Assembly (NCBI RefSeq): GCF_040054535.1
Contig: NC_090778.1
Location: 8,378,001-8,442,000 of the forward strand
Source: Antennarius striatus
Taxonomy: Eukaryota > Chordata > Actinopteri > Lophiiformes > Antennariidae
Direction: 5' to 3'
DNA length: 64,000 nucleotides
Made by a program: the position numbers and the translations under genes. Under the pieces are notes generated by a model. The model searched no databases and had not been told where the DNA came from. It saw nothing but the letters and a program-made list of their open reading frames with translations. Shown in pieces: positions 389-37,692 of the stretch (position 1 is its first letter; every line of letters starts with the position of its first letter).

Positions 389-976
389 GATATATTTAGG
401 GTCAACAGTCCAGAGCAATGGAGATTGTGGAAAAGAGGTGAAGAAGTGTGTACGGGAAGGGTGGAACGGGTGAAGAAAAATGTCAGGTGTGATGTGTAAT
501 AGAAGAGTTTCAGCTAAAATTAAAGGAAAGGTGTACGAAACTGTGGTGAGACCAGTGATGTTGTTTGGTCTAGAGACAGTGTCACTGAGGAAAAGACAGG
601 AGACAGAGCTGGAGGTAGCAGAGATGAAGATGCTGAGGTTCTCTCTGGGAGTGACCAGGAAGGATAGGATCATGAATGAGTACATCAGAGGGACAGCACA
701 TGTTGGAGGTTTTAGAGATAAAGTCAGAGAGGCCAGACTGAGATGGTTTGGACATGTCCAGAGGAGAGATAGTGAATATATTGGTAGAAGGATGCTGAGT
801 TTTGAACTGCCAGGCAGGAGGCCTAGAGGAAAACCAAAGAGGAAGTTTATGGATGTAGTGAAAGAGGACATGAAGGTAGTTGGTGTGAGAGAAGTGGATG
901 CAGAAGACAGGGTTAGATGGAGGCAACTGATTCACTGTGGCACCCCTGAAGGTAAAAGCCAAAAGGAGAAGAAGTC
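389..976 (+). mobile_element. 5'-truncated RTE-type LINE, 3' end only
   Basis: Homologous to the last ~590 bp of the two full LINEs at 27.2 and 34.5 kb: the C-terminal part of the reverse-transcriptase ORF (YETVVRPVMLFGLETVSL, then the RRPRGKPKRKFMDV tail) and the short 3' tail ending CACCCCTGAAGGTAAAAGCC. The frame is broken near 475 relative to the intact copy; the readable part is 480-1022. It is a typical 5'-truncated retrotransposition product and more diverged than the other two copies, so an older insertion. No convincing target-site duplication was found. Confidence 0.85.
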
Positions 977-1022
977 AGAAGCAGCCATGTTCACATGGGG
1001 CAATCATTGCGGCTCCCATTGA

Positions 1023-7468: not shown

Positions 7469-10400
7469 ATGGCCACTGCTGCGAAGAGCAATGAACTCAC
7501 GGTAAACAAATGTTTTTTAATTAGCAGAGTTACCAAGAATCTCCAGCTAACAGCTAAGTAAATGTTGAAAAAGAAGATTAAGATATAGTTCTATTAACAA
7601 AAAAAAAAATCTTTCAGTTTGTTCTGTGGTACAGCTCGAGTGTAAAGTTTTTTTCTGAACTGATTTACCCCCACAGGCTGAAAACCTCCGTTTATTTCTC
7701 ACAGAGCAGCGGGAACATGTCCGGAGACCAGGGCTGCAGGGCAGTCAGATCATCCACAGCAGGGCTGCAGAACTGTGAGAAACATAAATTACATTGAGTA
7801 AAGGGTCTTTGCTTTGTTCTGTGTAAACTTCAAACACAAAGCCAATCTTGTGCCTTCTATATGTTGGTTGATATTATTTCCATTACTATTACTACTATTG
7901 ATGTTTTTCTTTGCAGTTTTGAAAGTGGAAAAGAGGCAGCAGGAAAGTCCAACTACGAGAAGGCTGTGATCTACTTCTCTAAAGCTATCTCACTTCAGCC
8001 AAACCAGGTGCCTAATAAAAGGGAAACCTTACCTGTGTGAAATCCTACTGTATTTAATGACTCATGTTTCAACAGTAAATGATGAGTTTAATGAATTTTA
8101 AATTTATTATATTTTTGTTTGTTTTTTTATTTGTTTTTATATCAAGTATGTCAATTTTTTGTGTCAACCAAAAATGGCATTGAATCAATTTTATTTCTAA
8201 GCTGCTTCTGGTTATAATCCAAAACTCTATGCAAATGTTAAAGCAAACATCAGTTCACCGCAGACCCATGTGTGTGACCTCTCTGCTGGTTTCATTTCAC
8301 CAGTGTGTTCACGTTCCTGATGCTGTTGCTCGTGTCTTCTGGTGCGAGATGTTCTATTGCACTCCAGAGGCACTGTTTGTATTTCTGTACTTCCTCTTTT
8401 TACATTGGTATGAAAATAATCACCAATTGCTTTTTAGACTCAGTTACATGTAAGTCAGGCAGAGGCCTACCTTCAGCTGTGTGACTTTCAGTCAGCAGCG
8501 GCCTGCTATAACAGGGCGGAACTCCTGGAGCCCACAGCCTTTAGGACCCGTTTAAGCTTCATCTACTATCTCCAGGTATGACTCTCCAGAGCACATCTCT
8601 GATCAGGTGGGAGTTTAATGCTTTTCCTGAAGTATGGACACAAATATAGTATCAGAACAAATGAGTGACATCCTAATAAACACTAGTAAATGGGTTTGTT
8701 TTTATGAGTAACCTGCTACTCACTGAGAAAGGTACGGCGCTATAGGAAACGCTCAGCTGATTTGTTGATTTAGATAGCCTAAGTAAAATGGTTTATGTCT
8801 GTTTATGATCAAAAATAGTAATGTTGTATACAAGAAATTAAATTATTCATCATAGTAGCATTAACCAAACATTTGAATTGTCTAAACAGATTTGATTTGT
8901 CAGTCAAAATTTAATTTCCAGAGCAGGAAACAATTATTATGTTTCTGTGATTCTGATGATACACTTATTACAAGGCAGCCTTTATGGAAAAAAATCTGAT
9001 AAATGTCTAGACTTCAAAAATTTAATGGGGCTCGTTGTGTTTCGTCTCATCCCCAGGGTCAGTGCTTGTTTGATCAAGGTTTTTACCAGGTGGCCCTGGA
9101 GACCTTTGGCAAAGCTGCAGAGATGAAGCCTGGCTGTAGGGCCTACGAGGTCAGAAGGTCAGGACCCACACTGCTAAACCCAGAGTAAAGTTGTGCTTTT
9201 GTGCTTGGACTGACATAATTAACCTGAAAACAACATTTTGTTGTTATACAGACATGTCCTGTATGTTTCAATATATTACCATAACACATGAAATAAATTA
9301 TAGGACATTTACTCATATTTGAGAAGCTTGAAGTACTGCTGTGTGATAGATTTGATATTTGCAATACAGTTTTGTTATTTATGATTCTCATTCTGGTTTT
9401 GTTTGTAATCGACCCATTTTGCTCATTAATGTATTTTGTATCTTTCAACCCAGACTGGCCTGTCTGACAGCTGCAGGCCACCATGGTGACTGTCTGAAGC
9501 TGGTGAATGACTGGATGCTGTCTGATGGTCACACCTCTGACCTTTACATCCTCAGAGCTAGACTGCACAAACTACTTAACAAGGTTACAAATGCAGGGAC
9601 CGTTTATACTTCAAGCGCCTGATGAACAGCAGTATATGCTCTTTACATTTCATGTTAGCTGGTGTTAATCATGAGTCAAGATAATTCATGAGAGAAAGAT
9701 GAGTATTACCTTGTAAGAGAAAAAGACTATGTTTGTACTGGTCAAAGTTGCATTCTCACTATAAAAAATAAAACAAAGCATGGGCTTTTTCTCATGCAGA
9801 CATTGCTCTGTTATGAAGACATTAAGTCGGCGTTGGCATTGAACCCCACGTGTCCCAATGCTGGAGTCATGCTACTGCAGAGTCATGAAGTTAGTGAACA
9901 GGCTAGACAGAAAGCTGTGGACAGAGCCTTGACTGGTCAGCTGCCTGAAGCCCTCTGCTTGACCAATATTGCTCTGGAGTACTGCCAACAAAACGCATGG
10001 CTCTACATGTTCAGGTGAGTCCAACCAATGTGAAAAATACATGACATTTTACAAATGAGAGTATAGAAGGATGATTCCTGTGGAACACATCTCTCAGTTA
10101 CAAAATCACTCTCTTCTGTGAAGTCTCATCATCTAAGGACAGTGCTCTTGTGGCTCAGAACTTTGACCTTTCATCTGAAAGGATCTCAACAGTATAGCGT
10201 GTATTCTGGGGTCACCCTCTGAGTCACCAGGAACTATCTAGATTTTCCACAATCAACTTGTTTTCCAGGCTGTCCATTCCTTCAGGTGGACAGAGAGGAT
10301 GAGAAATTGATTCGGACAACTTAACAACAATCCTCAACCATTTTCCTCCCACAAAACTTCTGTCCATCAGGGGGATTCTGCATCGGCGCCTTAAAGACTT

Positions 10401-10657
10401 CAGAGCAGCCATTGAAGATCTCATCCAGGCTGTGGAGCTAAGTGAGGAGAAGGAGGAGATCAGAGGTCAATCAGAGGCCTTTGTACAAGAGGAGGCCCAT
10501 TTTCAACTGGTTCTCACCTTCAATGACCTTGCCATTCAGTGCTTCAGCAGACGCCTCTTTGCTGAGGCCACTCTGCTTCTCAACAAGGCCATCGAGGAGG
10601 AGAAGGGGCAGGCAGGCCTCTACTTAAACCGTGGAGGTGAGGTTTGGACTGTGTGTA

Positions 10658-10688
<31 letters not shown>

Positions 10689-13600
10689 TGTGTGTTTATG
10701 GATTAAAACACCTTAATAAATCACAGTGTATCACAGTGTATCATAGCTGTGAATCAGTCTGCTACTGCTGCAGGTAGAAAGTTATTTTTATCTTAAACCT
10801 GCAATGTCTGTTTATGAAAGGGATAGAACATCTAGTGTTGCGTGTGGTACTGAAACAAGTGGAACCCGACAAACCTGATCAACATTCCTTTGCGGTCGAG
10901 TAGACTATACTCTGCAGTAATGTGAAAGGAACACTGCATAACACAAAAAAGAAATTATTCCCTTACTAAATTTATCCTCAGCAGTGGTGATTTTGAAATT
11001 CTTAATACACACTTAATAAAGCACTACTGCTCTATAAGCTAAAATAAAACTTAGCAGAGTTTTGACCTCCATTTAGGCCCAACAGTCACCTTTAATTCAA
11101 AGACGACATCCAAAGTCAAACTGATTTACTGGGTAGATTTAGATAAGCACCAAATTACAAAATGTCACAGATATCAAAGACTTCTAAATTAGCTTGTTTT
11201 CTTTATTATTCCTGAGAATATACATAAATTGCAGAAATGTTCTGTAATCTTGCATTAATAAAAGGGAGACTGGATCTGGCCCTTTATCCACATCAGACTT
11301 TTAAGGGGGTCAATTCTGGGCTCAGACTGATCTCTGTATTTAGTAATCCATTTGATAATCAAAACAACCTATGGAATTAGTTGAATACATGATTTACAGT
11401 TATCTGATTATTCATTAATTAGCTGTTATTTCTTATTGTTGACAATTTTCTGATTTTCACTGTTTGATATTACTGCAAACTTTAGCTTTGGACAAGCCTG
11501 TGCATATGAACCTAGAGCATCTTTCATTGTCGTTTAAAGTTTTAAGTTGTTGTGGACTAACAGATGATTATGTTGGCCAGTAGGATGCATTTATTTGTAT
11601 TTGGGTAGGTATTCAGTTGTGTGTGCATACGTGTGTTTCAGACTGCTTCTTTAAGCAAACCGAGTGGTGGTTTGCTCTGGCTGATTATCGGCAGGCCGAG
11701 GACATGATGCAACCTGATGACCCCACTGTCCGACTTCGACTTGCAGTCCTGCACAACACACTAGGCTTTCTGCATTTCCAGGACGGGTGAGAACATCAGA
11801 AACATGTTCACAGGGGGAAACCCAGAGGGAAAGGTCACCTTAAATTACTCAGATCCCATGTTCATGAGTGTATTTGTGTGTCTGTGCAGGCATTTTCGGG
11901 AAGCAGCAGACATGTTTTCTCTGGCTATCCAATACAATCCTACAGCAAGTCAGTACTATGAGAACAGATCTAAGGCCTACCGGAAACTCCTAAACATGAA
12001 GTGCGCCAGACAAGACTTCATCTGCATGCTGATTCTGGAGCCCACTAATGAAGAGGCTAGTTCTTCATCAGTTCAGACCCACTGATTCATGTGATTCATA
12101 TGAAACTAACACAATGTAACATCAACCTGTCCATCTCATTGTGAGGTCATCAAGGAGATACTAAAGTTATGTAAACGCTAAAGCCTGACGAGTTTGACAA
12201 ATCGTTGTATCTGGATATTTTTTTTCATTTCATTTATTCGTCATTCCATGGTGCTGTAGATATAGCTTTGTTTCATTGAATATTATGGATTCTTAAGTCA
12301 AATACCGTATTGGCCCGAATATAAGACGGTGTTTTTTGCTTTGAAATAAGACTGAAAAAGTGGGGGTCGTCTTACATTCGGGGTCTAGACGTTATATCCA
12401 TTCATAGCACTAGATGGCGCCTGATATCTTTAAAGCGGAGGCTGAACTTAACTCCACAGGCAAACGCGAACCCCTGTCACGAAGAACAAAAATAATAATA
12501 GCGGTAGCACGAAGAACAAAAATAAAAATAGCGGTAAGAAAGAAAAGAGAAGAAAATAAGAGAAGAGATAACAGAAAATGGAGAAACGTAGCGACAATCT
12601 GGAGAAAAGTGGGTCGAAGATCGGCCAGGTTGGCAGCTGAGGAGAAGTTATGATGCAAACTTCAAAATGATGGTGATAAATGAGGCAGAGTCTTCAAACA
12701 ATTGCAAAGCAGCTGTGAAATATGGTGTCACAGAGTGTAATGTACGGAGATGTGCTGTAATTATTAAATTAAATAAAAATTAAATTTGGTGTTCAAAGTC
12801 TTTTTCAAACTTGAGTCTTGAAAAAGAGGGGGTCGTCTTATAATCAGGGTCGTCTTATATTTGGGCCAACACGGTAATACATCTGGTTTGTAAATAATTT
12901 TCTGGTTGATCACATATAATAAATTCTGCTTAATTGTTATTTAGTTAATAATTATATAGTCCTATTAGAAGACTGTGACTTCTGTCGTAATTAACATCTA
13001 TTTTATTTATATACCAAGATTGTGTGACTTTAAAATATTGTCTGTGTGTGTGTCTATGTCTGTATATCTGTATGTAGGTATCCCCTATGCTCATGCATCT
13101 GTTCCCTGGATATAGTGTGTCTGATGTTTTGTCGACCCCAGAAGGACAAGCGGTCAGAGTTCAGCTGATGGACACCATCCAGGCCTGCAGTCCATCCCCA
13201 GATCAACAAAGGTCTGCAACACAACAATAGCTAGAATGCTGGGCCATATCTGTTTTACGTTGACCATGGAACAGCAAAGCAAGTTTCAGTCAGATGCACT
13301 GGTTCACATTAGCAAAATAAATCTGTTGTCAACACTGGATATTCTGAGTGAAGCCTGTTTGCTGCTTGTGCCAGCTGAGAAGCTGGATAGAGGACCCTTT
13401 CTAATTTACTTTCCCCATCATTGTTGCTGATGGTATATGTGTCAAACTGACAGTGAGTGCCTCCAGTCAGGCAGGGCTATGCCAGATGGGTAGAAAAAAG
13501 CACAACGACAATCTGCATGGGCAAACACATTGATAATTCTGATGTTATTTTCTTCCGACATTAATAATATATTTTTTATTACTGTTCTTACTAAAACAAC

Positions 13601-19501: not shown

Positions 19502-19702
19502 TCACTTCCAGCCATTCATCTCTTTAAGCTTGCTGATGCTGGTCCCTTTGATAGGTGTGGAGATCGGGGGATTGTGAAGAGGCAGAGTGGGGGTACTACA
19601 GGCTTGTTTCCATAGCTTTTTAGTGGGGATTGTCCACACTTTCTGAGATGACTTCTTCTTTGGCTTGTCCTTATTGTCTTTAGAAGTAGCAGGGGACATG
19701 GT
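19502..19702 (-). CDS. mymk: Candidate extra C-terminal exon of mymk
   Basis: A 67-codon frame (66 residues plus TGA) follows a strong acceptor (TTGTTCCCTCTTCAG at 19717-19703). A donor GTATGT sits inside exon 5 exactly after TGC TGC TGT (exon end 19799). Splicing over the resulting 96 bp intron keeps frame and replaces the last eight residues by a Lys/Ser/Pro-rich tail beginning TMSPATSKDNKDKPKKKSS. The tail has no membrane segment and would be cytoplasmic. It could be a teleost isoform; I recall that trout myomaker was reported with sequence extensions. It could instead be a chance frame in the 3' UTR. Coding status is inferred from splice signals and frame alone. Confidence 0.5.
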   Translation of the reverse strand, partial: TMSPATSKDNKDKPKKKSSQKVWTIPTKKLWKQACSTPTLPLHNPPISTPIKGTSISKLKEMNGWK

Positions 19703-21299
19703 CTGAAGAGGGAACAATTATGAAGCCGGATCAGAAGGACATGTGGGTTTGATTGTACTGATAATAATGCCTTAATAGATATAATAAATGCAACATACAC
19801 AGCAGCAGAGAGTGAAGCAGCTCAGTTTAGCAGCATTTTGCCCTGTCCCTGCATAGCGGTTCTTCTTTGGCAGCAACAGAATGAAAGACACAGCCAGAGA
19901 CAAATGGTAGAAGCTGTGGACATAGGCGTAGTCCCATTCCTACAATGAAGAGAATACAGCAAAATCTATTTGAGGTGACTTGATTTATTATTAACTTAAA
20001 AACAAAAAAATATATGTAAGTAGGTAACTTCTGCCTTTTACTGTTTCTTTTTAATTTGATGAAGCAGTTCAAATAGAAATTAAAAGGTTATGTGACAATA
20101 TAATACTTGTAAACTGGGCAATACATGAATTATGTGGTTAAATTAAGTAAACTGAAAATATAGCCTTATGGCAAATAATCATACGACCTATGATCCTGAA
20201 ATTTTGTAATACTTGTGTTAGAATTAGTTTTACTTTGATGATATCACCTCAAAGTAGAAACGCAGCATCAGAGCCAGAGCGCCGAAGCAGCATCCTGGAC
20301 CGACCTGCTGTGTGTAGACTGTCTTTTCTGGGTACACTGCCTTTAATTGCTTCATCTTCTGGAGCTAAAATTATACAGTAATGATATCCATAGGTTAGAA
20401 CATGCACATTTGAAGAGGATTGATGGATTTAATAAATGTCAGAAAATGTGAAAGGAATTTAAAAAAATAAGCAGAAGTGAAGGTAGATTAAAAAGGAGTG
20501 CGTGGAATGGTTGATAGGGGAGGTGAGAAAACCAAATGAAGAGAATGCTGGAGAAAAAAGAAGCAGAGAAAATATGAATGGAGAGGGCAAAGGTAAAAGT
20601 GGACTAAGATCATGACAAAGATGTAAAAAAATGGTATAAAGTAGATGGACAACCATTTAGATAAAAGAATAGAATAAACGTAAAAAATGACTGTCATGAA
20701 CAGAACAGATAAGCATTTGGCTATCATTGCATGAAAATGTTTACATACAACATTCAACACCAACTCATACCTGACAATGGATAGTAACTAACCCATTTGA
20801 CAGTGATGATAAACACAGCTGATCCAATGGGCCCAGAGTAGATCCCATAGCCCCAGCAATCCTGGTAAATCCTCACAGCAATTGTCAGTACTCCAAACAT
20901 GGTTATACTTGAGCGTTGGGGTTCATCAAAGTCTCCCAGAGCTGGAGCAAGTACACGCAACACATGTTGAACTGTTTTGTTACTTTTATCTCTAATATCA
21001 GACTGACATGCTAACATTTATTTTCCATTAAACACCGTAAAAATTACTCTCCTAAAAGGATCCCAAAGCTCTCAGATATCCAACAAATCCTGTATTTTCA
21101 TCATGGTGTTTACCAGGAAGGAAAAACACACTTCAAATATAATGTGTGTCCTTTTGAAGCTCTTGAAGAACATGAACAAACATGGATGGATGGATGGATG
21201 GATGGAGTGATGGGTAGGTGGGTGGATGACAGACCACTTAGTAAGGTCAGCTGTTAATACATTTTGTTATATGTTGTAGGACCGCAAGGGAGAAAGGAT

Positions 21300-21368
<69 letters not shown>

Positions 21369-22467
21369 ATATAAAATACCAAGCATGTGAGTTGAAGTCA
21401 AACACAGCATATGCTATCAACAGCTGTTGCAGACTGAGCTGGTAGTAATAGTATTAGTATTAGCCTTCTGTATGGAAAGTGCAGTTGTCAAATATAAACT
21501 AATAGTCAAATATTTCCTTTAATGAAAATACATTTTTCAGAGGGATCAATGAAGTAATTATAATAGGTTAACCTAGTTACATGGTTTACTGCGTGACCAG
21601 TGACAAATGCAATATGTATCAGGGTTAACATCAGAAAGGTGCCAATCATAAAAAGGAGTGAAATAAGTCAAACTGAAGAATTAAAACTTGTAAAATGATT
21701 AAATGATATAGGAGGAAAGAGATGACTTTGTGTAACTGTGAATTCAGACAAAAAAGCATAGGTTTGAAGTTGTTTTAAGAAATTTAGATGCGATTAAGGA
21801 GCCTTCCAGTCTGATCCCAGGTGTTAAAAGTATTACACGAGGACTTACCAATAAGTGTGACCCACATGGAGAGAGCTGTGCCATAAACACTGAAGTACTC
21901 CAGAATGTTGTACCTCATGAAACACAGGATGGAAAGCCCTGGTCCATCACAAGCATGGTAGATCTACCAAAAGACATACATGATCAAGTCAGACAGACAG
22001 AGTCAAAATCTAGGATTTTACTTATGACCTCCAGTTGGACTTTCAGCGGCTCAGTTATACAAAGAGTGCAATCACTAATAGCTGCTTAAATATATATAAA
22101 ACATGTAGCTAGAGATAATTTGTTGTTGTGTGGCAATACAGTATTCAATGCTTGCAATTTCTGAAACTTCAACAATCTACAAAACTGCAGTCATTATATA
22201 GTATTAGATTTAAGCAGTTTTGAAAGACAAAGTCTTCAGGTCATAACCAGAGACATCAGTGCTGTCAGCCACCTGACATTTCCCTCAAACACAAAAAATA
22301 GAATCCTAACAAGAAGAAAAATCCATTCTCACTGCAGTGAAAAACATGGTGAAGAAGTAGACCATAGCCTCCATGTGGAAACCTCTCTTGGCAGCCACGC
22401 TTGCTGTAGGCAGGAACACCAGGCTGCTAACTGTAGGAAGGAGCATCTTGGCAATAAATGCACCCAT
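19502..22467 (-). CDS. mymk: Myomaker, multipass muscle-cell fusogen
   Basis: Myomaker is a seven-pass membrane protein of myoblasts needed for membrane hemifusion during muscle fibre formation. Exons on the minus strand are 22467-22333, 21963-21849, 20941-20793, 20364-20248 and 19939-19772, with GT-AG introns and exact phase agreement. Read this way the product is 227 residues, ending CCCV plus seven extra residues before TAA at 19774-19772; human myomaker is 221. Hallmarks are MGAFIAKMLLPTVSSLVFLP at the N-terminus, YHACDGPG, ILEYFSVYGTALSMW, LGDFDEP, WGYGIYSGPIG and VHSFYH, whose HxxxH fits the metal-binding pattern of the related CREST membrane hydrolases. C-terminal cysteines TLCCC are probable palmitoylation sites. 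The start is in a strong ACCATGG context. An alternative end splices from 19799 to an extra exon 19702-19502 (see separate entry), giving 285 residues. The human neighbour ADAMTSL2 is also the next gene here. Confidence 0.95.
21183..21228. repeat. (GGAT)n microsatellite
   Basis: A short GGAT tract decaying to GGTG units in mymk intron 2, possibly the tail of a lost LINE. Confidence 0.85.
21302..21367. repeat. (GT)n microsatellite in mymk intron 2
   Basis: About 33 perfect GT units. Confidence 0.97.
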
Positions 22468-26931: not shown

Positions 26932-27238
26932 AAATGCATGAACATAACTAATTGCATGTATATATACATGCATATACATACACATACGTATATGTTCATA
27001 CACATTTGTACATATACTGTACATACATATACATAAAATACAGTATGCATGTCACTGTCATGCTGTGAGGTTCATGGCTGGTGACGCACTGGCGTTCAAC
27101 TAAGTTTTACGAGCCAAAAAGAGTGGTGTATTTGCCATCATACTAGCAGCCTGATATTAAAAACTGGTTAAAAATCATATACAATGCAAATGATTGGACT
27201 ACCAATCCAAACAAGGTTCGATTAATAAATGAAGACCA

Positions 27239-30200
27239 ATGTCAGAGCTCAAAGATTGTGCTTATTGTGCCGGTCCCAAGCCCGGATAAATACAGAGGGT
27301 TGCGTCAGGAAGGGCATCCGGCGTAAAACTTTTGCCAAATCAAAGATGCGAATCAAACCTATGACTTCCATACCGGATCGGTCGAGGCCCGGGTTAACAA
27401 CGACCGCCATCGGCGCTGTTGACCTACAGGGCGCCGGTGGAAATTGGATTACTGTTGGTCGAAGAAGGAGAGGAGGAAAGCGCGTTCGCACGAAGAAAGA
27501 GAAGAGGAACACCAAGAGTATAGGACTGAGAGTAGGGACGTTGAATGTTGGAACTATGACAGGAAAAGGTAGAGAGTTGGTTGACATGATGCAGAGGAGG
27601 AAGGTAGACATACTGTGTGTCCAGGAGACCAGGTGGAAAGGTAGCAAGGCTAGAAGTTTAGGAGCAGGGTTCAAGTTGTTCTATCATGGTGTAGATGGGA
27701 AGAGAAATGGAGTAGGAGTTATCTTGAAGGAGGAGTTTGTTAGGAATGTCCTGGAGGTAAAAAGAGTGTCAGATAGAGTGATGAGTCTGAAGCTAGAAAT
27801 AGAAGGTGTGATGTTCAATGTTGTTAGCGGGTATGCTCCACAGGTAGGATGTGAGCTGGAGGAGAAGGAGAAATTCTGGTCGGACCTTGATGAAGTGATG
27901 CAGAGCATGCCTAGAAGTGAGAGAGTTGTCATTGGAGCAGACTTCAATGGACATGTTGGTGCAGGAAACAGAGGTGATGAGGAGGTGATGGGCAGGTTTG
28001 GTATCCAGGAGAGGAACGCAGAAGGACAGATGGTAGTTGACTTTGCAAAAAGGATGGAAATGGCTGTAGTGAATACTTTCTTCCAGAAGAGGCAGGAACA
28101 TAGAGTGACCTATAAGAGTGGCGGTAGGAGCACACAGGTAGACTACATCTTGTGTAGACGGTGTAACCTGAAAGAGATCAGTGACTGCAAAGTAGTGGTA
28201 GGTGAGAGTGTAGCCAAACAGCAAAGGATGGTGGTGTGTAGGATGACTCTGGTGGTGAGGAAGATGAAGAGGGCAAAGGCAGAGCAGAAGACAAAATGGT
28301 GGAAGCTGAAAAAGGAAGAGTGTTGCATGACTTTTAGGAAGGAGTTAAGACAGGCTCTGGGTGGTCAGGAGGTGCTTCCAGATGACTGGACAACTACAGC
28401 TAATGTGATCAGGGAGACAGGTAGGAGAGTACTTGGTGTGTCATCTGGAAGGAAAGTAGATAAGGAGACTTGGTGGTGGAATGAGGAGGCACAGGAGTGT
28501 ATACAGAGAAAGAGGTTAGCCAAGAGGAAGTGGGACACTGAGAGGACTGAGGAGAGTAGACAGGAGTACAGGGAGATGCAGCGTAAGGTGAAGGTAGAGG
28601 TAGCAAAGGCCAAACAAGAAGCTTATGATGACTTGAATGCTAGGTTGGACAGTAAGGAGGGAGAGACTGATCTATACCGGTTGGCAAGACAGAGAGATAG
28701 AGATGGGAAGGACGTGCAGCCGGTTAGGGTGATTAAGGATAGGGATGGAAGTCTATTGACAGGTGCCAGTAGTGTGATGGGAAGATGGAAAGAGTACTTT
28801 GAAGAGTTGATGAACGTGGAAAATGAGAGGGAACAAAGACTAGAAGAGGTGACTGTTGTGGACCAGGATGTAGCAAAGATTAGTCAGGATGAAGTGAGGA
28901 GGGCATTGAAGAGGATGAAGAGTGGAAAGGCAGTCGGTCCTGATGATATACCTGTAGAGGTATGGAAGTGTCTAGGAGAGGTGGCGGTAGAGTTTCTGAC
29001 TGGGTTGTTCAACAGGATCTTAGATAGTGAGAAGATGCCTGAGGAATGGAGGAGAAGTGTGCTGGTGCCCATTTTTAAGAACAAGGGAGATGTGCAGAGT
29101 TGTGGCAACTACAGAGGAATAAAGCTGATGAGCCATACAATGAAGTTATGGGAGAGAGTAGTGGAAGCTAGACTAAGGGCAGAAGTGAACATTTGTGAGC
29201 AGCAGTATGGTTTCATGCCAAAAAAGAGTACTAAAGATGCAGTATTTGCTTTGAGGATGTTGATAGAGAAGTACAGAGAAGGCCAGAGGGAGCTGCATTG
29301 TGTTTTTGTAGATCTGGAGAAAGCTTATGACAGGGTGCCCAGAGAGGAACTGTGGTATTGTATGAGGAAGTCTGGAGTGGCAGAGAAGTATGTTAGAACG
29401 GTGCAGGACATGTAAGAAGACTGTAAGACAGTGGTGAGGTGTGCTGTAGGTGTGACAGAGGAGTTCAAGGTGGAGGTGGGACTGCATCAGGGATCAGCTC
29501 TGAGCCCCTTCTTGTTTGCCATGGTGATGGACAGGCTGACAGACGAGGTTAGACAGGAATCTCCATGGACTATGATGTTTGCAGATGACATTGTGATCTG
29601 TAGTGAGAGCAGGGAACAGGTGGAGGAGAAGCTAGAGAAGTGGAGGTTTGTCCTGGAAAGGAGAGGAATGAAGGTTAGCCGCAGTAAGACAGAGTACATG
29701 TGTGTGAATGAGAGGGACCCAAGTGGAAGAGTGAGGTTAGAGGGAGAAGAGATCAAGAAGGTGGAGGATTTTAAGTACTTAGGCTCAACAGTCCAGAGCA
29801 ATGGAGAGTGTGGAAAAGAGGTGAAGAAGCGTGTCCAGGCAGGATGGAACGGGTGGAGGAAAGTGTCAGGTGTGATGTGTGATAGAAGAGTTTCAGCTAA
29901 AATGAAGGGAAAGGTGTACAAAACTGTGGTGAGACCAGCGATGTTGTTTGGTCTAGAGACAGTGTCACTGAAGAAAAGACAGGAGACAGAGCTAGAGGTA
30001 GCAGAGATGAAGATGCTGAGGTTCTCCCTGGGAGTGACCAGGAAGGATAGGATCAGGAATGAGTATATCAGAGGGACAGCACATGTTAGAGGTTTTGGAG
30101 ATAAAGTCAGAGAGGCCAGACTGAGATGGTTTGGACATGTCCAGAGGAGAGATAGTGAATATATTGGTAGAAGGATGCTGAGTTTTGAACTGCCAGGCAG

Positions 30201-30377
30201 GAGGCCTAGAGGAAGACCAAAGAGGAGGTTTATGGATGTAATGAGGGAAGACATGAAGGTAGTTGGTGTGAGAGAAGAGGATTCAAAGGACAGGGCTAGA
30301 TGGAGGAAATTGATTCACTGTGGCGACCCCTGAAGGGAAAAGCCGAAAGGAAAAGAAGAATGTCAGAGCTCAAAGAT
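27239..30377 (+). mobile_element. RTE-type LINE copy 1 (near full length, one stop codon)
   Basis: A non-LTR retrotransposon flanked by an 18 bp target-site duplication ATGTCAGAGCTCAAAGAT (27239-27256 and 30360-30377). The element body is 27257-30359. It encodes an apurinic-type endonuclease followed by reverse transcriptase, then a short 3' tail ending CCGAAAGGAAAAGAAGA. It lacks the extra 5' leader of copy 2. It is almost identical to the copy at 34.5 kb, so both are recent insertions. The clade call (RTE) rests on the endonuclease and C-terminal sequence style. Confidence 0.9.
27346..30333 (+). pseudogene. LINE endonuclease-reverse transcriptase ORF, interrupted
   Basis: From the conserved ATG at 27346 (MRIKPM) the frame covers the endonuclease (LNVGTM, QETRW, SGYAPQ, GADFNGHVG, STQVDYILCRR) and the first half of the reverse transcriptase (GNYRGIKLMSH, QQYGFMPKKST, VFVDLEKAYDRVP). 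It stops at TAA, 29413-29415. The intact copy has TAT here, so one base change separates them. After the stop the same frame continues from 29416 to TGA at 30331-30333 and includes the FADD catalytic box. The stop comes before FADD, so this copy cannot make active enzyme without readthrough. The open frame also extends upstream into host flank to 27229 by chance. Confidence 0.88.
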
Positions 30378-34503: not shown

Positions 34504-37500
34504 AAAGAAAGAAACAGATGAAATGTAGCCGCAAGAGGACAATGTAGCCGCAAGAGGACACAAGCCAGTGTCTTATTGTGCCGGTCCCAAGCCCGGATAA
34601 ATACAGAGGGTTGCGTCAGGAAGGGCATCCGGCGTAAAACTTTTGCCAAATCAAAGATGCGAATCAAACCTATGACTTCCATACCGGATTGGTCGAGGCC
34701 CGGGTTAACAACGACCGCCATCGGCGCTGTTGACCCACAGGGCGCCGGTGGAAATTGGATTACTGTTGGTCGAAGAAGGAGAGGAGGAAAGTGCGTTCGC
34801 ACGAAGAAAGAGAAGAGGAACACCAAGAGTATAGGACTGAGAGTAGGGACGTTGAATGTTGGAACTATGACACGAAAAGGTAGAGAGTTGGTTGACATGA
34901 TGCAGAGGAGGAAGGTAGACATACTGTGTGTCCAGGAAACCAGGTGGAAAGGTAGCAAGGCTAGAAGTTTAGGAGCAGGGTTCAAGTTGTTCTATCATGG
35001 TGTAGATGGGAAGAGAAATGGAGTAGGAGTTATCTTGAAGGAGGAGTTTGTTAGGAATGTCCTGGAGGTAAAAAGAGTGTCGGATAGAGTGATGAGTCTG
35101 AAGCTAGAAATAGAAGGTGTGATGTTCAATGTTGTTAGCGGGTATGCTCCACAGGTAGGATGTGAGCTGGAGGAGAAGGAGAAATTCTGGTCGGACCTTG
35201 ATGAAGTGATGCAGAGCATGCCTAGAAGTGAGAGAGTTGTCATTGGAGTAGACTTCAATGGACATGTTGGTGCAGGAAACAGAGGTGATGAGGAGGTGAT
35301 GGGCAGGTTTGGTGCCCAGGAGAGGAACGCAGAAGGACAGATGGTAGTTGACTTTGCAAAAAGGATGGAAATGGCTGTAGTGAATACTTTCTTCCAGAAG
35401 AGGCAGGAACACAGAGTGACCTTTAAGAGTGGCGGTAGGAGCACACAGGTAGACTACATCTTGTGTAGACGGTGTAACCTGAAAGAGATCAGTGACTGCA
35501 AAGTAGTGGTAGGTGAGAGTGTAGCCAAACAGCATAGGATGGTGGTGTGTAGGATGACTCTGGTGGTGAGGAAGATGAAGAGGGCAAAGGCAGAGCAGAA
35601 GACAAAATGGTGGAAGCTGAAAAAGGAAGAGTGTTGCATGACTTTTAGGAAGGAGTTAAGACAGGCTCTGGGTGGTCAGGAGGTGCTTCCAGATGACTGG
35701 ACAACTACAGCTAATGTGATCAGGGAGACAGGTAGGAGAGTACTTGGTGTGTCATCTGGAAGGAAAGTAGATAAGGAGACTTGGTGGTGGAATGAGGAGG
35801 CACAGGAGTGTATACAGAGAAAGAGGTTAGCCAAGAGGAAGTGGGACACTGAGAGGACTGAGGAGAGTAGACAGGAGTACAGGGAGATGCAGCGTAAGGT
35901 GAAGGTAGAGGTAGCAAAGGCCAAACAAGAAGCTTATGATGACTTGTATGCTAGGTTGGACAGTAAGGAGGGAGAGACTGATCTATACCGGTTGGCAAGA
36001 CAGAGAGATAGAGATGGGAAGGACGTGCAGCCGGTTAGGGTGATTAAGGATAGGGATGGAAGTCTATTGACAGGTGCCAGTAGTGTGATGGGAAGATGGA
36101 AAGAGTACTTTGAAGAGTTGATGAACGTGGAAAATGAGAGGGAACAAAGACTAGAAGAGGTGACTGTTGTGGACCAGGATGTAGCAAAGATTAGTCAGGA
36201 TGAAGTGAGGAGGGCATTGAAGAGGATGAAGAGTGGAAAGGCAGTCGGTCCTGATGATATACCTGTAGAGGTATGGAAGTGTCTAGGAGAGGTGGCGGTA
36301 GAGTTTCTGACTGGGTTATTCAACAGGATCTTAGATAGTGAGAAGATGCCTGAGGAATGGAGGAGAAGTGTGCTGGTGCCCATTTTTAAGAACAAGGGAG
36401 ATGTGCAGAGTTGTGGCAACTACAGAGGAATAAAGCTGATGAGCCATACAATGAAGTTATGGGAGAGAGTAGTGGAAGCTAGACTAAGGGCAGAAGTGAA
36501 CATTTGTGAGCAGCAGTATGGTTTCATGCCAAAAAAGAGTACTACAGATGCAGTATTTGCTTTGAGGATGTTGATAGAGAAGTACAGAGAAGGCCAGAGG
36601 GAGCTGCATTGTGTTTTTGTAGATCTGGAGAAAGCTTATGACAGGGTGCCCAGAGAGGAACTGTGGTATTGTATGAGGAAGTCTGGAGTGGCAGAGAAGT
36701 ATGTTAGAATGGTGCAGGACATGTATGAAGACTGTAAGACAGTGGTGAGGTGTGCTGTAGGTGTGACAGAGGAGTTCAAGGTGGAGGTGGGACTGCATCA
36801 GGGATCAGCTCTGAGCCCCTTCTTGTTTGCCATGGTGATGGACAGGCTGACAGACGAGGTTAGACAGGAATCTCCATGGACTATGATGTTTGCAGATGAC
36901 ATTGTGATCTGTAGTGAGAGCAGGGAACAGGTGGAGGAGAAGCTAGAGAAGTGGAGGTTTGTCCTGGAAAGGAGAGGAATGAAGGTTAGCCGCAGTAAGA
37001 CAGAGTACATGTGTGTGAATGAGAGGGACCCAAGTGGAATAGTGAGGTTACAGGGAGAAGAGATCAAGAAGGTGGAGGATTTTAAGTACTTAGGCTCAAC
37101 AGTCCAGAGCAATGGAGAGTGTGGAAAAGAGGTGAAGAAGCGTGTCCAGGCAGGATGGAACGGGTGGAGGAAAGTGTCAGGTGTGATGTGTGATAGAAGA
37201 GTTTCAGCTAAAATGAAGGGAAAGGTGTACAAAACTGTGGTGAGACCAGCGATGTTGTTTGGTCTAGAGACAGTGTCACTGAAGAAAAGACAGGAGACAG
37301 AGCTAGAGGTAGCAGAGATGAAGATGCTGAGGTTCTCTCTGGGAGTGACCAGGAAGGATAGGATCATGAATGAGTACATCAGAGGGACAGCACATGTTAG
37401 AGGTTTTAGAGATAAAGTCAGAGAGGCCAGACTGAGATGGTTTGGACATGTCCAGAGGAGAGATAGTGAATATATTGGTAGAAGGATGCTGAGTTTTGAA

Positions 37501-37692
37501 CTGCCAGGCAGGAGGTCTAGAGGAAGACCAAAGAGGAGGTTTATGGATGTAATGAGGGAAGACATGAAGGTAGTTGGTGTGAGAGAAGAGGATTCAAAGG
37601 ACAGGGCTAGATGGAGGAAATTGATTCGCTGTGGCGACCCCTGAAGGGAAAAACCGAAAGGAAAAGAAGAAGAAAGAAAGAAACAGATGAAA
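34504..37692 (+). mobile_element. RTE-type LINE copy 2, intact and full length
   Basis: Flanked by a 20 bp target-site duplication (AAAGAAAGAAACAGATGAAA at 34504-34523 and 37673-37692). The 5' leader holds two perfect 19 bp units AATGTAGCCGCAAGAGGAC (34522-34540, 34541-34559), absent from copy 1. The shared body starts at CTTATTGTGCCGGTCCC (34572). The single ORF is unbroken, making it the only copy here that looks capable of moving. Confidence 0.92.
34657..37644 (+). CDS. LINE endonuclease-reverse transcriptase, intact
   Basis: One open frame of 995 codons plus a stop from the first in-frame ATG (34657, MRIKPM); the frame is open upstream to 34576. Domain order: a short basic region with GGKCVRTKKEKRN, then the apurinic/apyrimidinic-type endonuclease that nicks target DNA (LNVGTM, CVQETRW, VSGYAPQ, VDFNGHVG, VDYILCRR), a Lys/Arg-rich linker, and the reverse transcriptase with KAVGPDDIPVEVWK, CGNYRGIKLMSH, VFVDLEKAYDRVP, GLHQGSALSPFLFAM and FADD (36889-36900). 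The C-terminus carries RRSRGRPKRRFMDVMRED. The endonuclease motif is VDFN where copy 1 has ADFN. No separate ORF1 is seen, usual for this clade. Product acts on its own RNA for target-primed reverse transcription. Confidence 0.9.
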   Translation: MRIKPMTSIPDWSRPGLTTTAIGAVDPQGAGGNWITVGRRRRGGKCVRTKKEKRNTKSIGLRVGTLNVGTMTRKGRELVDMMQRRKVDILCVQETRWKGSKARSLGAGFKLFYHGVDGKRNGVGVILKEEFVRNVLEVKRVSDRVMSLKLEIEGVMFNVVSGYAPQVGCELEEKEKFWSDLDEVMQSMPRSERVVIGVDFNGHVGAGNRGDEEVMGRFGAQERNAEGQMVVDFAKRMEMAVVNTFFQKRQEHRVTFKSGGRSTQVDYILCRRCNLKEISDCKVVVGESVAKQHRMVVCRMTLVVRKMKRAKAEQKTKWWKLKKEECCMTFRKELRQALGGQEVLPDDWTTTANVIRETGRRVLGVSSGRKVDKETWWWNEEAQECIQRKRLAKRKWDTERTEESRQEYREMQRKVKVEVAKAKQEAYDDLYARLDSKEGETDLYRLARQRDRDGKDVQPVRVIKDRDGSLLTGASSVMGRWKEYFEELMNVENEREQRLEEVTVVDQDVAKISQDEVRRALKRMKSGKAVGPDDIPVEVWKCLGEVAVEFLTGLFNRILDSEKMPEEWRRSVLVPIFKNKGDVQSCGNYRGIKLMSHTMKLWERVVEARLRAEVNICEQQYGFMPKKSTTDAVFALRMLIEKYREGQRELHCVFVDLEKAYDRVPREELWYCMRKSGVAEKYVRMVQDMYEDCKTVVRCAVGVTEEFKVEVGLHQGSALSPFLFAMVMDRLTDEVRQESPWTMMFADDIVICSESREQVEEKLEKWRFVLERRGMKVSRSKTEYMCVNERDPSGIVRLQGEEIKKVEDFKYLGSTVQSNGECGKEVKKRVQAGWNGWRKVSGVMCDRRVSAKMKGKVYKTVVRPAMLFGLETVSLKKRQETELEVAEMKMLRFSLGVTRKDRIMNEYIRGTAHVRGFRDKVREARLRWFGHVQRRDSEYIGRRMLSFELPGRRSRGRPKRRFMDVMREDMKVVGVREEDSKDRARWRKLIRCGDP

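What the first reader, a model, noticed from the sequence alone, without database searches (positions are those of the whole stretch)
19502..19939. Myomaker with an alternative C-terminal tail exon
Exon 5 of mymk can be read through to a TAA seven residues past the usual CCxV end, or spliced at an internal GTATGT after TGC TGC TGT to an exon at 19702-19502. The splice is in phase, the 96 bp intron ends in a strong pyrimidine-tract acceptor, and the new exon adds a 66-residue Lys/Ser/Pro-rich tail. The myomaker C-terminus is known to matter for localisation and fusion, so a switchable tail in a fish would be functionally interesting. The splice and frame are seen; use in vivo is inferred.
Basis: partly seen in the sequence, partly recalled or inferred. 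Interest (0 to 1): 0.75.

Follow-up and report, generated by a model that had tools for sequence, protein, structure and literature searches.

The report
Ordinary last exon of fish myomaker
The extra tail-coding exon is real, but it looks like the normal last exon that related fishes already carry on the muscle-fusion protein myomaker, so in this fish it is probably fixed and not a switch.

Summary
The sequence observation is correct. Exon 5 of mymk ends TGC TGC TGT|GTATGT, a 96-base intron follows, and exon 6 (19702-19502) continues in phase for 66 residues. The spliced protein is 285 aa, the length published for gilthead sea bream (6 exons) and Chinese perch. The sea bream paper met the same 5-exon/6-exon ambiguity and traced it to an automatic annotation that put exon 6 in the 3' UTR. 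Of 50 euteleost models tabulated, 40 carry the tail in frame; in 23 of them its last 15 residues are about as conserved as the membrane core. The read-through ending is not conserved: 6 models and the window share 7% identity beyond its second residue, which in all seven is one that a splice-donor codon (NGT) can encode. So here the tail is most likely constitutive. The calls also suggest an older history: a shorter homologous tail occurs in bichir, sturgeon, gar, eel, mormyrid, anchovy, carp and catfish models, while 6 of 19 non-euteleost models end at CCCV, in catfish beside the long form. A two-ended myomaker may be the ancestral ray-finned state, lost in euteleosts. No RNA, and no DNA of other fish, could be examined.

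The parts
22333..22467 (-). mymk coding exon 1 (starts ATGGGTGCATTT)
   Evidence: conceptual splice; matches Channa myomaker from residue 1
21849..21963 (-). mymk exon 2
20793..20941 (-). mymk exon 3 (codon 112 = TGC at 20858-20856, Cys where homologues have Arg)
20248..20364 (-). mymk exon 4
19799..19939 (-). mymk exon 5, ending ...TLCCC
19703..19798 (-). intron 5, 96 nt, GTATGT...CCCTCTTCAG; its first bases would read V-CCIYYIY-stop if retained
19502..19702 (-). mymk exon 6: 66-residue C-terminal tail TMSPATSK...ISKLKEMNGWK and TGA stop

Best explanation
This is the mymk (myomaker) gene of a fish close to the spiny-rayed group, with a six-exon layout like that described for sea bream. Exon 6 is the normal, most likely constitutive last coding exon. 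It appends a 66-residue tail directly after the Cys cluster; in mouse that cluster is cytosolic, palmitoylated and needed for fusion. Shown here: exon structure, phase, homology and conservation of the tail, and lack of conservation of the read-through end. Inferred: that splicing is near-complete in muscle. Inferred mechanism of the tail (about 0.4): a disordered, basic linker (14 Lys, 3 Asp/Glu) beside the palmitoylated cysteines strengthens inner-leaflet attachment or trafficking, and the conserved end (KGxSISxLKEMNGWK) is a docking motif for an unknown partner. Also inferred, since no DNA of older fish was read: in this lineage the exon 5 stop after Val was replaced by a codon that improves the splice donor (Val codon = GT of the donor, next codon NGT), so the short ending was lost.
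For: Six exons join to 285 aa, the length reported for sea bream (6 exons) and Chinese perch. 209 homologues at E<=1e-3, 120 listed; the best percomorph models align over 100% of the 285 residues at up to 92% identity. Tail-only search: 16 proteins, best E 2.0e-24. Of 50 euteleost models in the table, 40 carry the tail in frame (38 directly after the Cys cluster, 2 irregular), 3 are composites, 6 are read-through and 1 is out of frame (sorted by hand, recounted). In 23 of those 40, chosen by hand, the last 15 residues match the window on average 0.92 per column (8 of 15 columns invariant), against 0.93 in residues 1-172 (104 of 172) and 0.90 in exon 5 (26 of 47). Read-through ends: 7 of 7 (6 models + window) start with Val followed by G, C, S or R, the residues NGT codons encode (background 0.248, p about 6e-5); mean identity beyond residue 2 is 0.07. 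The stretch is single in the genome.
Against: No transcript evidence. The donor has a poor exonic side (TGT; the CAG consensus is recalled). The first part of the tail is poorly conserved (0.55 for residues 220-244, no invariant column; 0.58 for 245-270, 2 of 26). Six read-through and three composite models exist among 50 euteleost models, so retained-intron transcripts cannot be ruled out. The sea bream mRNA used as 'cDNA' bears an XM accession, which I recall marks a predicted record. The NGT test was devised after seeing the window's donor, rests on amino acids except in the window, and the species are not independent; one unnamed genomic ORF has Trp there (P0122), which is not NGT. Structure models are low in confidence (mean pLDDT 44.1 and 58.5). 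The function of the tail was not tested here, and the Chinese perch paper says it needs study.
Confidence: 0.9

Rival explanations
1. Regulated alternative end in this fish: exon 5 read-through (227 aa, ...CCCVCCIYYIY) and the spliced 285-aa form are both made and serve different stages or membranes.
For: Both frames are open. Read-through models exist for 6 of 50 euteleost models. In channel catfish, outside the euteleosts, both ends are annotated (X1 and X3).
Against: The read-through residues are not conserved (mean identity 0.07) and in 0 of 7 euteleost cases does the end stop at Val. The sea bream authors judged the 5-exon model an annotation error. Five of the 6 read-through models are listed with UniRef as their only source; the sixth, Dallia, is a hypothetical protein in NCBI and UniRef.
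Confidence: 0.08
2. Exon 6 is not coding: the true protein is the short or read-through form and the open frame is chance in a 3' UTR.
For: One automatic annotation in sea bream treated it so.
Against: Protein-level conservation across percomorphs and a cod, tails of the same kind in pike and salmonids, and profile similarity to non-euteleost tails above each of 200 column shuffles.
Confidence: 0.02

Closest known systems
Gilthead sea bream myomaker, 285 aa, 6 exons (PMC9737248; section 2.1 and passages seen)
   Same: Same exon number, same protein length, and a rival 5-exon annotation with exon 6 placed in the 3' UTR.
   Different: Species; that 5-exon product is 232 aa, here 227 aa. Its sequence was not compared letter by letter here.
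Chinese perch myomaker, 285 aa (PMC11394465; passages seen)
   Same: Same length; 65 aa longer than the zebrafish protein at the C-terminus, with a low-complexity part at 225-240.
   Different: Species; the siRNA work there is on the gene, not on the tail.
Rainbow trout myomaker, 434 aa (Landemaine et al. 2019 J Biol Chem; not held, known from citing passages and a recalled abstract)
   Same: Salmonid models carry the same tail with the terminal ISKLKEQNGWK.
   Different: They have a further repeat-bearing extension inside the tail that this fish lacks.
Short myomaker of tetrapods and zebrafish, 220-221 aa; solved chains such as 8t03_A, 221 aa
   Same: The core; Channa myomaker aligns to 8t03_A over residues 1-219.
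   Different: They end just after the Cys cluster (CCCV in the bird and coelacanth models) and have no tail.

Membership tests
Myomaker (MYMK/TMEM8C) | DUF3522 (PF12036) membrane core | tested here: met
   PF12036 at residues 4-185, E 2.1e-48
Myomaker (MYMK/TMEM8C) | Closest relatives by sequence are myomakers, with a Cys cluster after the last membrane helix | tested here: met
   Best hits named myomaker at 92% identity over 100%...TLCCC at 215-219
Myomaker (MYMK/TMEM8C) | Seven membrane helices and fusogenic activity | not testable with these tools
   Long helices appear in a model of Channa myomaker with mean pLDDT 58.5; topology and activity need experiment
Six-exon myomaker with C-terminal extension | Phase-0 junction after the Cys cluster to a tail of about 66 aa, total 285 aa | tested here: met
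   length and exon number compared
Six-exon myomaker with C-terminal extension | Conserved terminus KG.SIS.LKEMNGWK | tested here: met
   8 of the last 15 columns invariant in 23 orthologues; the LKExNGW end found in 43 of 50 euteleost models
Regulated alternative C-terminus | The short ending is itself conserved in relatives | tested here: not met
   0 of 7 euteleost read-through ends stop at Val; mean identity 0.07
Regulated alternative C-terminus | Both transcripts present in muscle RNA | not testable with these tools
   no RNA reads available

The most novel reading that the evidence does not exclude
A short tail exon already present in bichir, sturgeon and gar was spliced optionally, with the Val codon of the CCCV end doubling as the GT of the donor. 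Euteleosts then lost the stop, gained a stronger donor, made the tail obligatory and added a conserved ISKLKE(M/Q)NGWK end. This would place the tail's origin before Euteleostei (the date I recall from the trout paper's abstract) and make catfish or zebrafish the place to test a tail switch.
Probability: 0.35. Interest if true: 0.5.

Novelty: already known. Interest (0 to 1): 0.25.

Why it matters
It removes a false lead: no new regulated isoform is needed to explain the exon in this fish. A model that stops at exon 5 cuts off a conserved tail, as happened in sea bream, and the short mouse and zebrafish proteins are incomplete stand-ins for the tailed myomakers of sea bream, perch and trout. 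The comparison also frames a testable question: what a basic tail placed directly on the palmitoylated cysteines does, in a protein where deleting or changing the last seven residues abolishes fusion in the mouse form (review passage).

Tried and rejected
Chance open frame: rejected by homology. Second copy or repeat: one match in the genome (that search skips simple repeats); the whole-protein search gave 7 matches, 6 on this gene and one weak one elsewhere on the same contig (48% over residues 45-86, E 7.7e-8, L016), probably a paralogue, not followed up. No tandem array of score 50 or more in exon 6. Tail borrowed from another gene: the tail-only search gave seven PF12036 (myomaker-type) proteins and nine unnamed 'lgn' ORFs from 29 candidates. 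The nine looked like possible transcripts, but 8 of 9 read in from upstream non-coding sequence or start at the tail's own Met, and P0122 spans exon 5, intron and exon 6. All nine run on past NGWK into Trp where this gene has TGA, so I take them as genomic ORFs read with TGA as Trp, not RNA evidence. Gar-tail search: found only itself among 2 candidates, so the breadth of the older tail rests. Viral-contig scan for fish DNA: 23 pattern matches, none confirmed, so no codon-level (dN/dS) test. Structure: two AlphaFold2 runs of Channa myomaker (mean pLDDT 44.1 and 58.5) were too weak for a fold search, which was not run. Direct tail comparisons against window, Channa and salmon are weak for bichir (p 0.072, 0.809, 0.337) and modest for gar (0.028, 0.011, 0.001); bichir's link runs through sturgeon (0 of 10000 shuffles). 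Literature (held library only): no paper holds 'myomaker' with 'Euteleostei' or 'actinopterygian'; 'myomaker' + 'C-terminal extension' gave two papers unrelated by title; the 20 listed of 183 in the sturgeon/spotted gar search hold no 'myomaker'; 13 papers holding 'myomaker', 'splice variant' and 'zebrafish' were seen as a listing and not opened. Neighbouring genes (synteny) were not identified.

Full report
What was claimed and what is there. The window holds the mymk gene on the minus strand. Six exons, 22467-22333, 21963-21849, 20941-20793, 20364-20248, 19939-19799 and 19702-19502, join to 858 nt encoding 285 aa. The protein matches PF12036. The close Channa argus orthologue matches solved myomaker chains such as 8t03_A over residues 1-219. 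The exon 5-exon 6 stretch is single in the 548-Mb genome; a whole-protein search found this gene and one weak match elsewhere (48% over 42 residues).

Relatives. A search with the spliced protein gave 209 homologues, 120 listed (89 not seen), with the best percomorph models aligned over the full length at up to 92% identity. I tabulated 72 of the 120: the ray-finned models I recognised by name plus three outgroups (sorting by hand, recounted). Of 50 euteleost models, 40 carry the tail in frame: 38 directly after the Cys cluster, Tetraodon (P0059) with exon 5 skipped, and Sander X2 (P0013) from an internal acceptor. Three (P0009, P0019, P0101) are composites of read-through and tail, 6 are read-through, and 1 (a cod model) is out of frame. 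Of 19 non-euteleost ray-finned models, 12 carry a shorter tail (one truncated), 6 end at CCCV (two of them from one paddlefish species), and 1 is out of frame. The three outgroups (coelacanth, lungfish, elephant shark; 220 aa each) have no tail.

Conservation. In 23 of the 40 tailed models (left out: 9 salmonid/pike, 4 near-duplicates or isoforms, 4 partial or irregular), mean identity to the window per column is 0.93 in residues 1-172, 0.90 in exon 5, 0.55 in tail residues 220-244, 0.58 in 245-270 and 0.92 in 271-285, where 8 of 15 columns are invariant. So the tail's end is under strong constraint and its Lys-rich start is loose in sequence and length.

The read-through end. In 6 read-through models plus the window, the first residue after the Cys cluster is Val in 7 of 7, and the next is G, G, C, S, G, R, C: all residues that NGT codons encode. 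Against a background of 0.248 the chance is about 6e-5. The test was chosen after seeing GTATGT, it rests on amino acids except in the window, and the species are related, so I take it as support for a conserved donor and not as a formal probability. The three composite models also have C, S and R there (not in the test). One unnamed genomic ORF (P0122) has Trp there, which fits G at donor position +5 but is not NGT. Beyond that residue the seven ends share 7% identity. In short, related fish conserve the spliced tail and, by inference, the donor, not the read-through protein.

What is published. The sea bream paper (abstract and outline, section 2.1 whole, other passages by search) reports the same ambiguity: an Ensembl 5-exon model of 232 aa, corrected to 6 exons and 285 aa by aligning a cDNA record with the genome. 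It also says that the zebrafish, trout and yellowfin seabream genes have six exons. The Chinese perch paper (passages) reports 285 aa, 65 aa beyond the zebrafish protein, a low-complexity part at 225-240, and says the effect of the extension needs study. From recall of the abstract of Landemaine et al. 2019 (not held), trout myomaker is 434 aa and fusogenic, a first extension of about 70 aa was dated to Euteleostei, and a second, minisatellite extension to salmonids and pike. The finding is therefore known in kind.

An older tail. Profiles of euteleost and non-euteleost tails match. Twenty-six percomorph/cod tails plus the window against 11 non-euteleost tails (of 12; the truncated one left out) give E 1.4e-7, score 36.9 against a maximum of 15.3 in 200 column shuffles; five salmonid/pike tails against the same 11 give E 1.5e-10, score 56.4 against a maximum of 20.4. 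The shared core reads about (R/K)(S/T)(I/V)W..P...PW.RAC.P.LPL (my reading). Sturgeon against salmon: 1 of 10000 shuffles reach the score; bichir against sturgeon: 0 of 10000. Bichir directly against euteleost tails is not significant, and gar is modest (p 0.001 to 0.028). Short or read-through models end exactly at Val in 6 of 6 non-euteleosts and 0 of 7 euteleosts (Fisher p 5.8e-4; not corrected for kinship; composites and out-of-frame models left out). Catfish has both ends as X1 and X3. This fits an optional tail in early ray-finned fishes that became obligatory when euteleosts replaced the stop with a better donor. These are predicted models; no RNA or DNA of those species could be read.

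How it may work. A review (passages) states that the mouse C-terminus is intracellular, carries three palmitoylated cysteines, and that deleting or changing residues 215-221 abolishes fusion; another (passages) ties palmitoylation to Golgi trafficking and membrane localisation. In this fish a tail with 14 Lys and 3 acidic residues follows those cysteines directly. In two models of Channa myomaker the tail is mostly below pLDDT 50; both draw a short helix at 275-281, itself at low confidence (about 50). I infer a flexible basic linker near the inner leaflet plus a terminal docking motif; this is inference.

Verdict. Observation confirmed; 'switchable' not supported in this fish, though RNA was not seen; the exon is most likely the known, constitutive last exon of percomorph-type myomaker.

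Noticed in passing
window 20858-20856 (minus strand), mymk codon 112: Codon TGC gives Cys where Arg stands in 117 of 117 homologues that cover the residue, from sharks to mammals (of 120: two have no aligned residue and one model that skips the region is misaligned). It may be an allele, a species change or an assembly error.
   Followed up: partly
window 27229-30333 and 34522-37644 (+): Two similar non-LTR retrotransposon frames by eye. The first has endonuclease and reverse transcriptase domains and is split by a stop; the second is open. A further fragment of the same kind lies at 474-1022 (+).
   Followed up: partly
window 10303-10716 (+): Exon-like open frame with weak tetratricopeptide-repeat matches, below the curated cut-offs.
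   Followed up: no
P0121-P0129 (unnamed 'lgn' proteins): Nine database ORFs over fish mymk exon 6 read on past the tail's end into Trp where this gene has TGA, as if predicted with a TGA=Trp code.
   Followed up: no
Sander, Perca and pipefish-group models (P0007, P0011, P0014, P0016, P0023, P0029): The Lys-rich start of the tail is lengthened by short repeats (e.g. GTTKEKT, EKKDTP) outside salmonids too, which suggests repeat growth inside exon 6 more than once.
   Followed up: no
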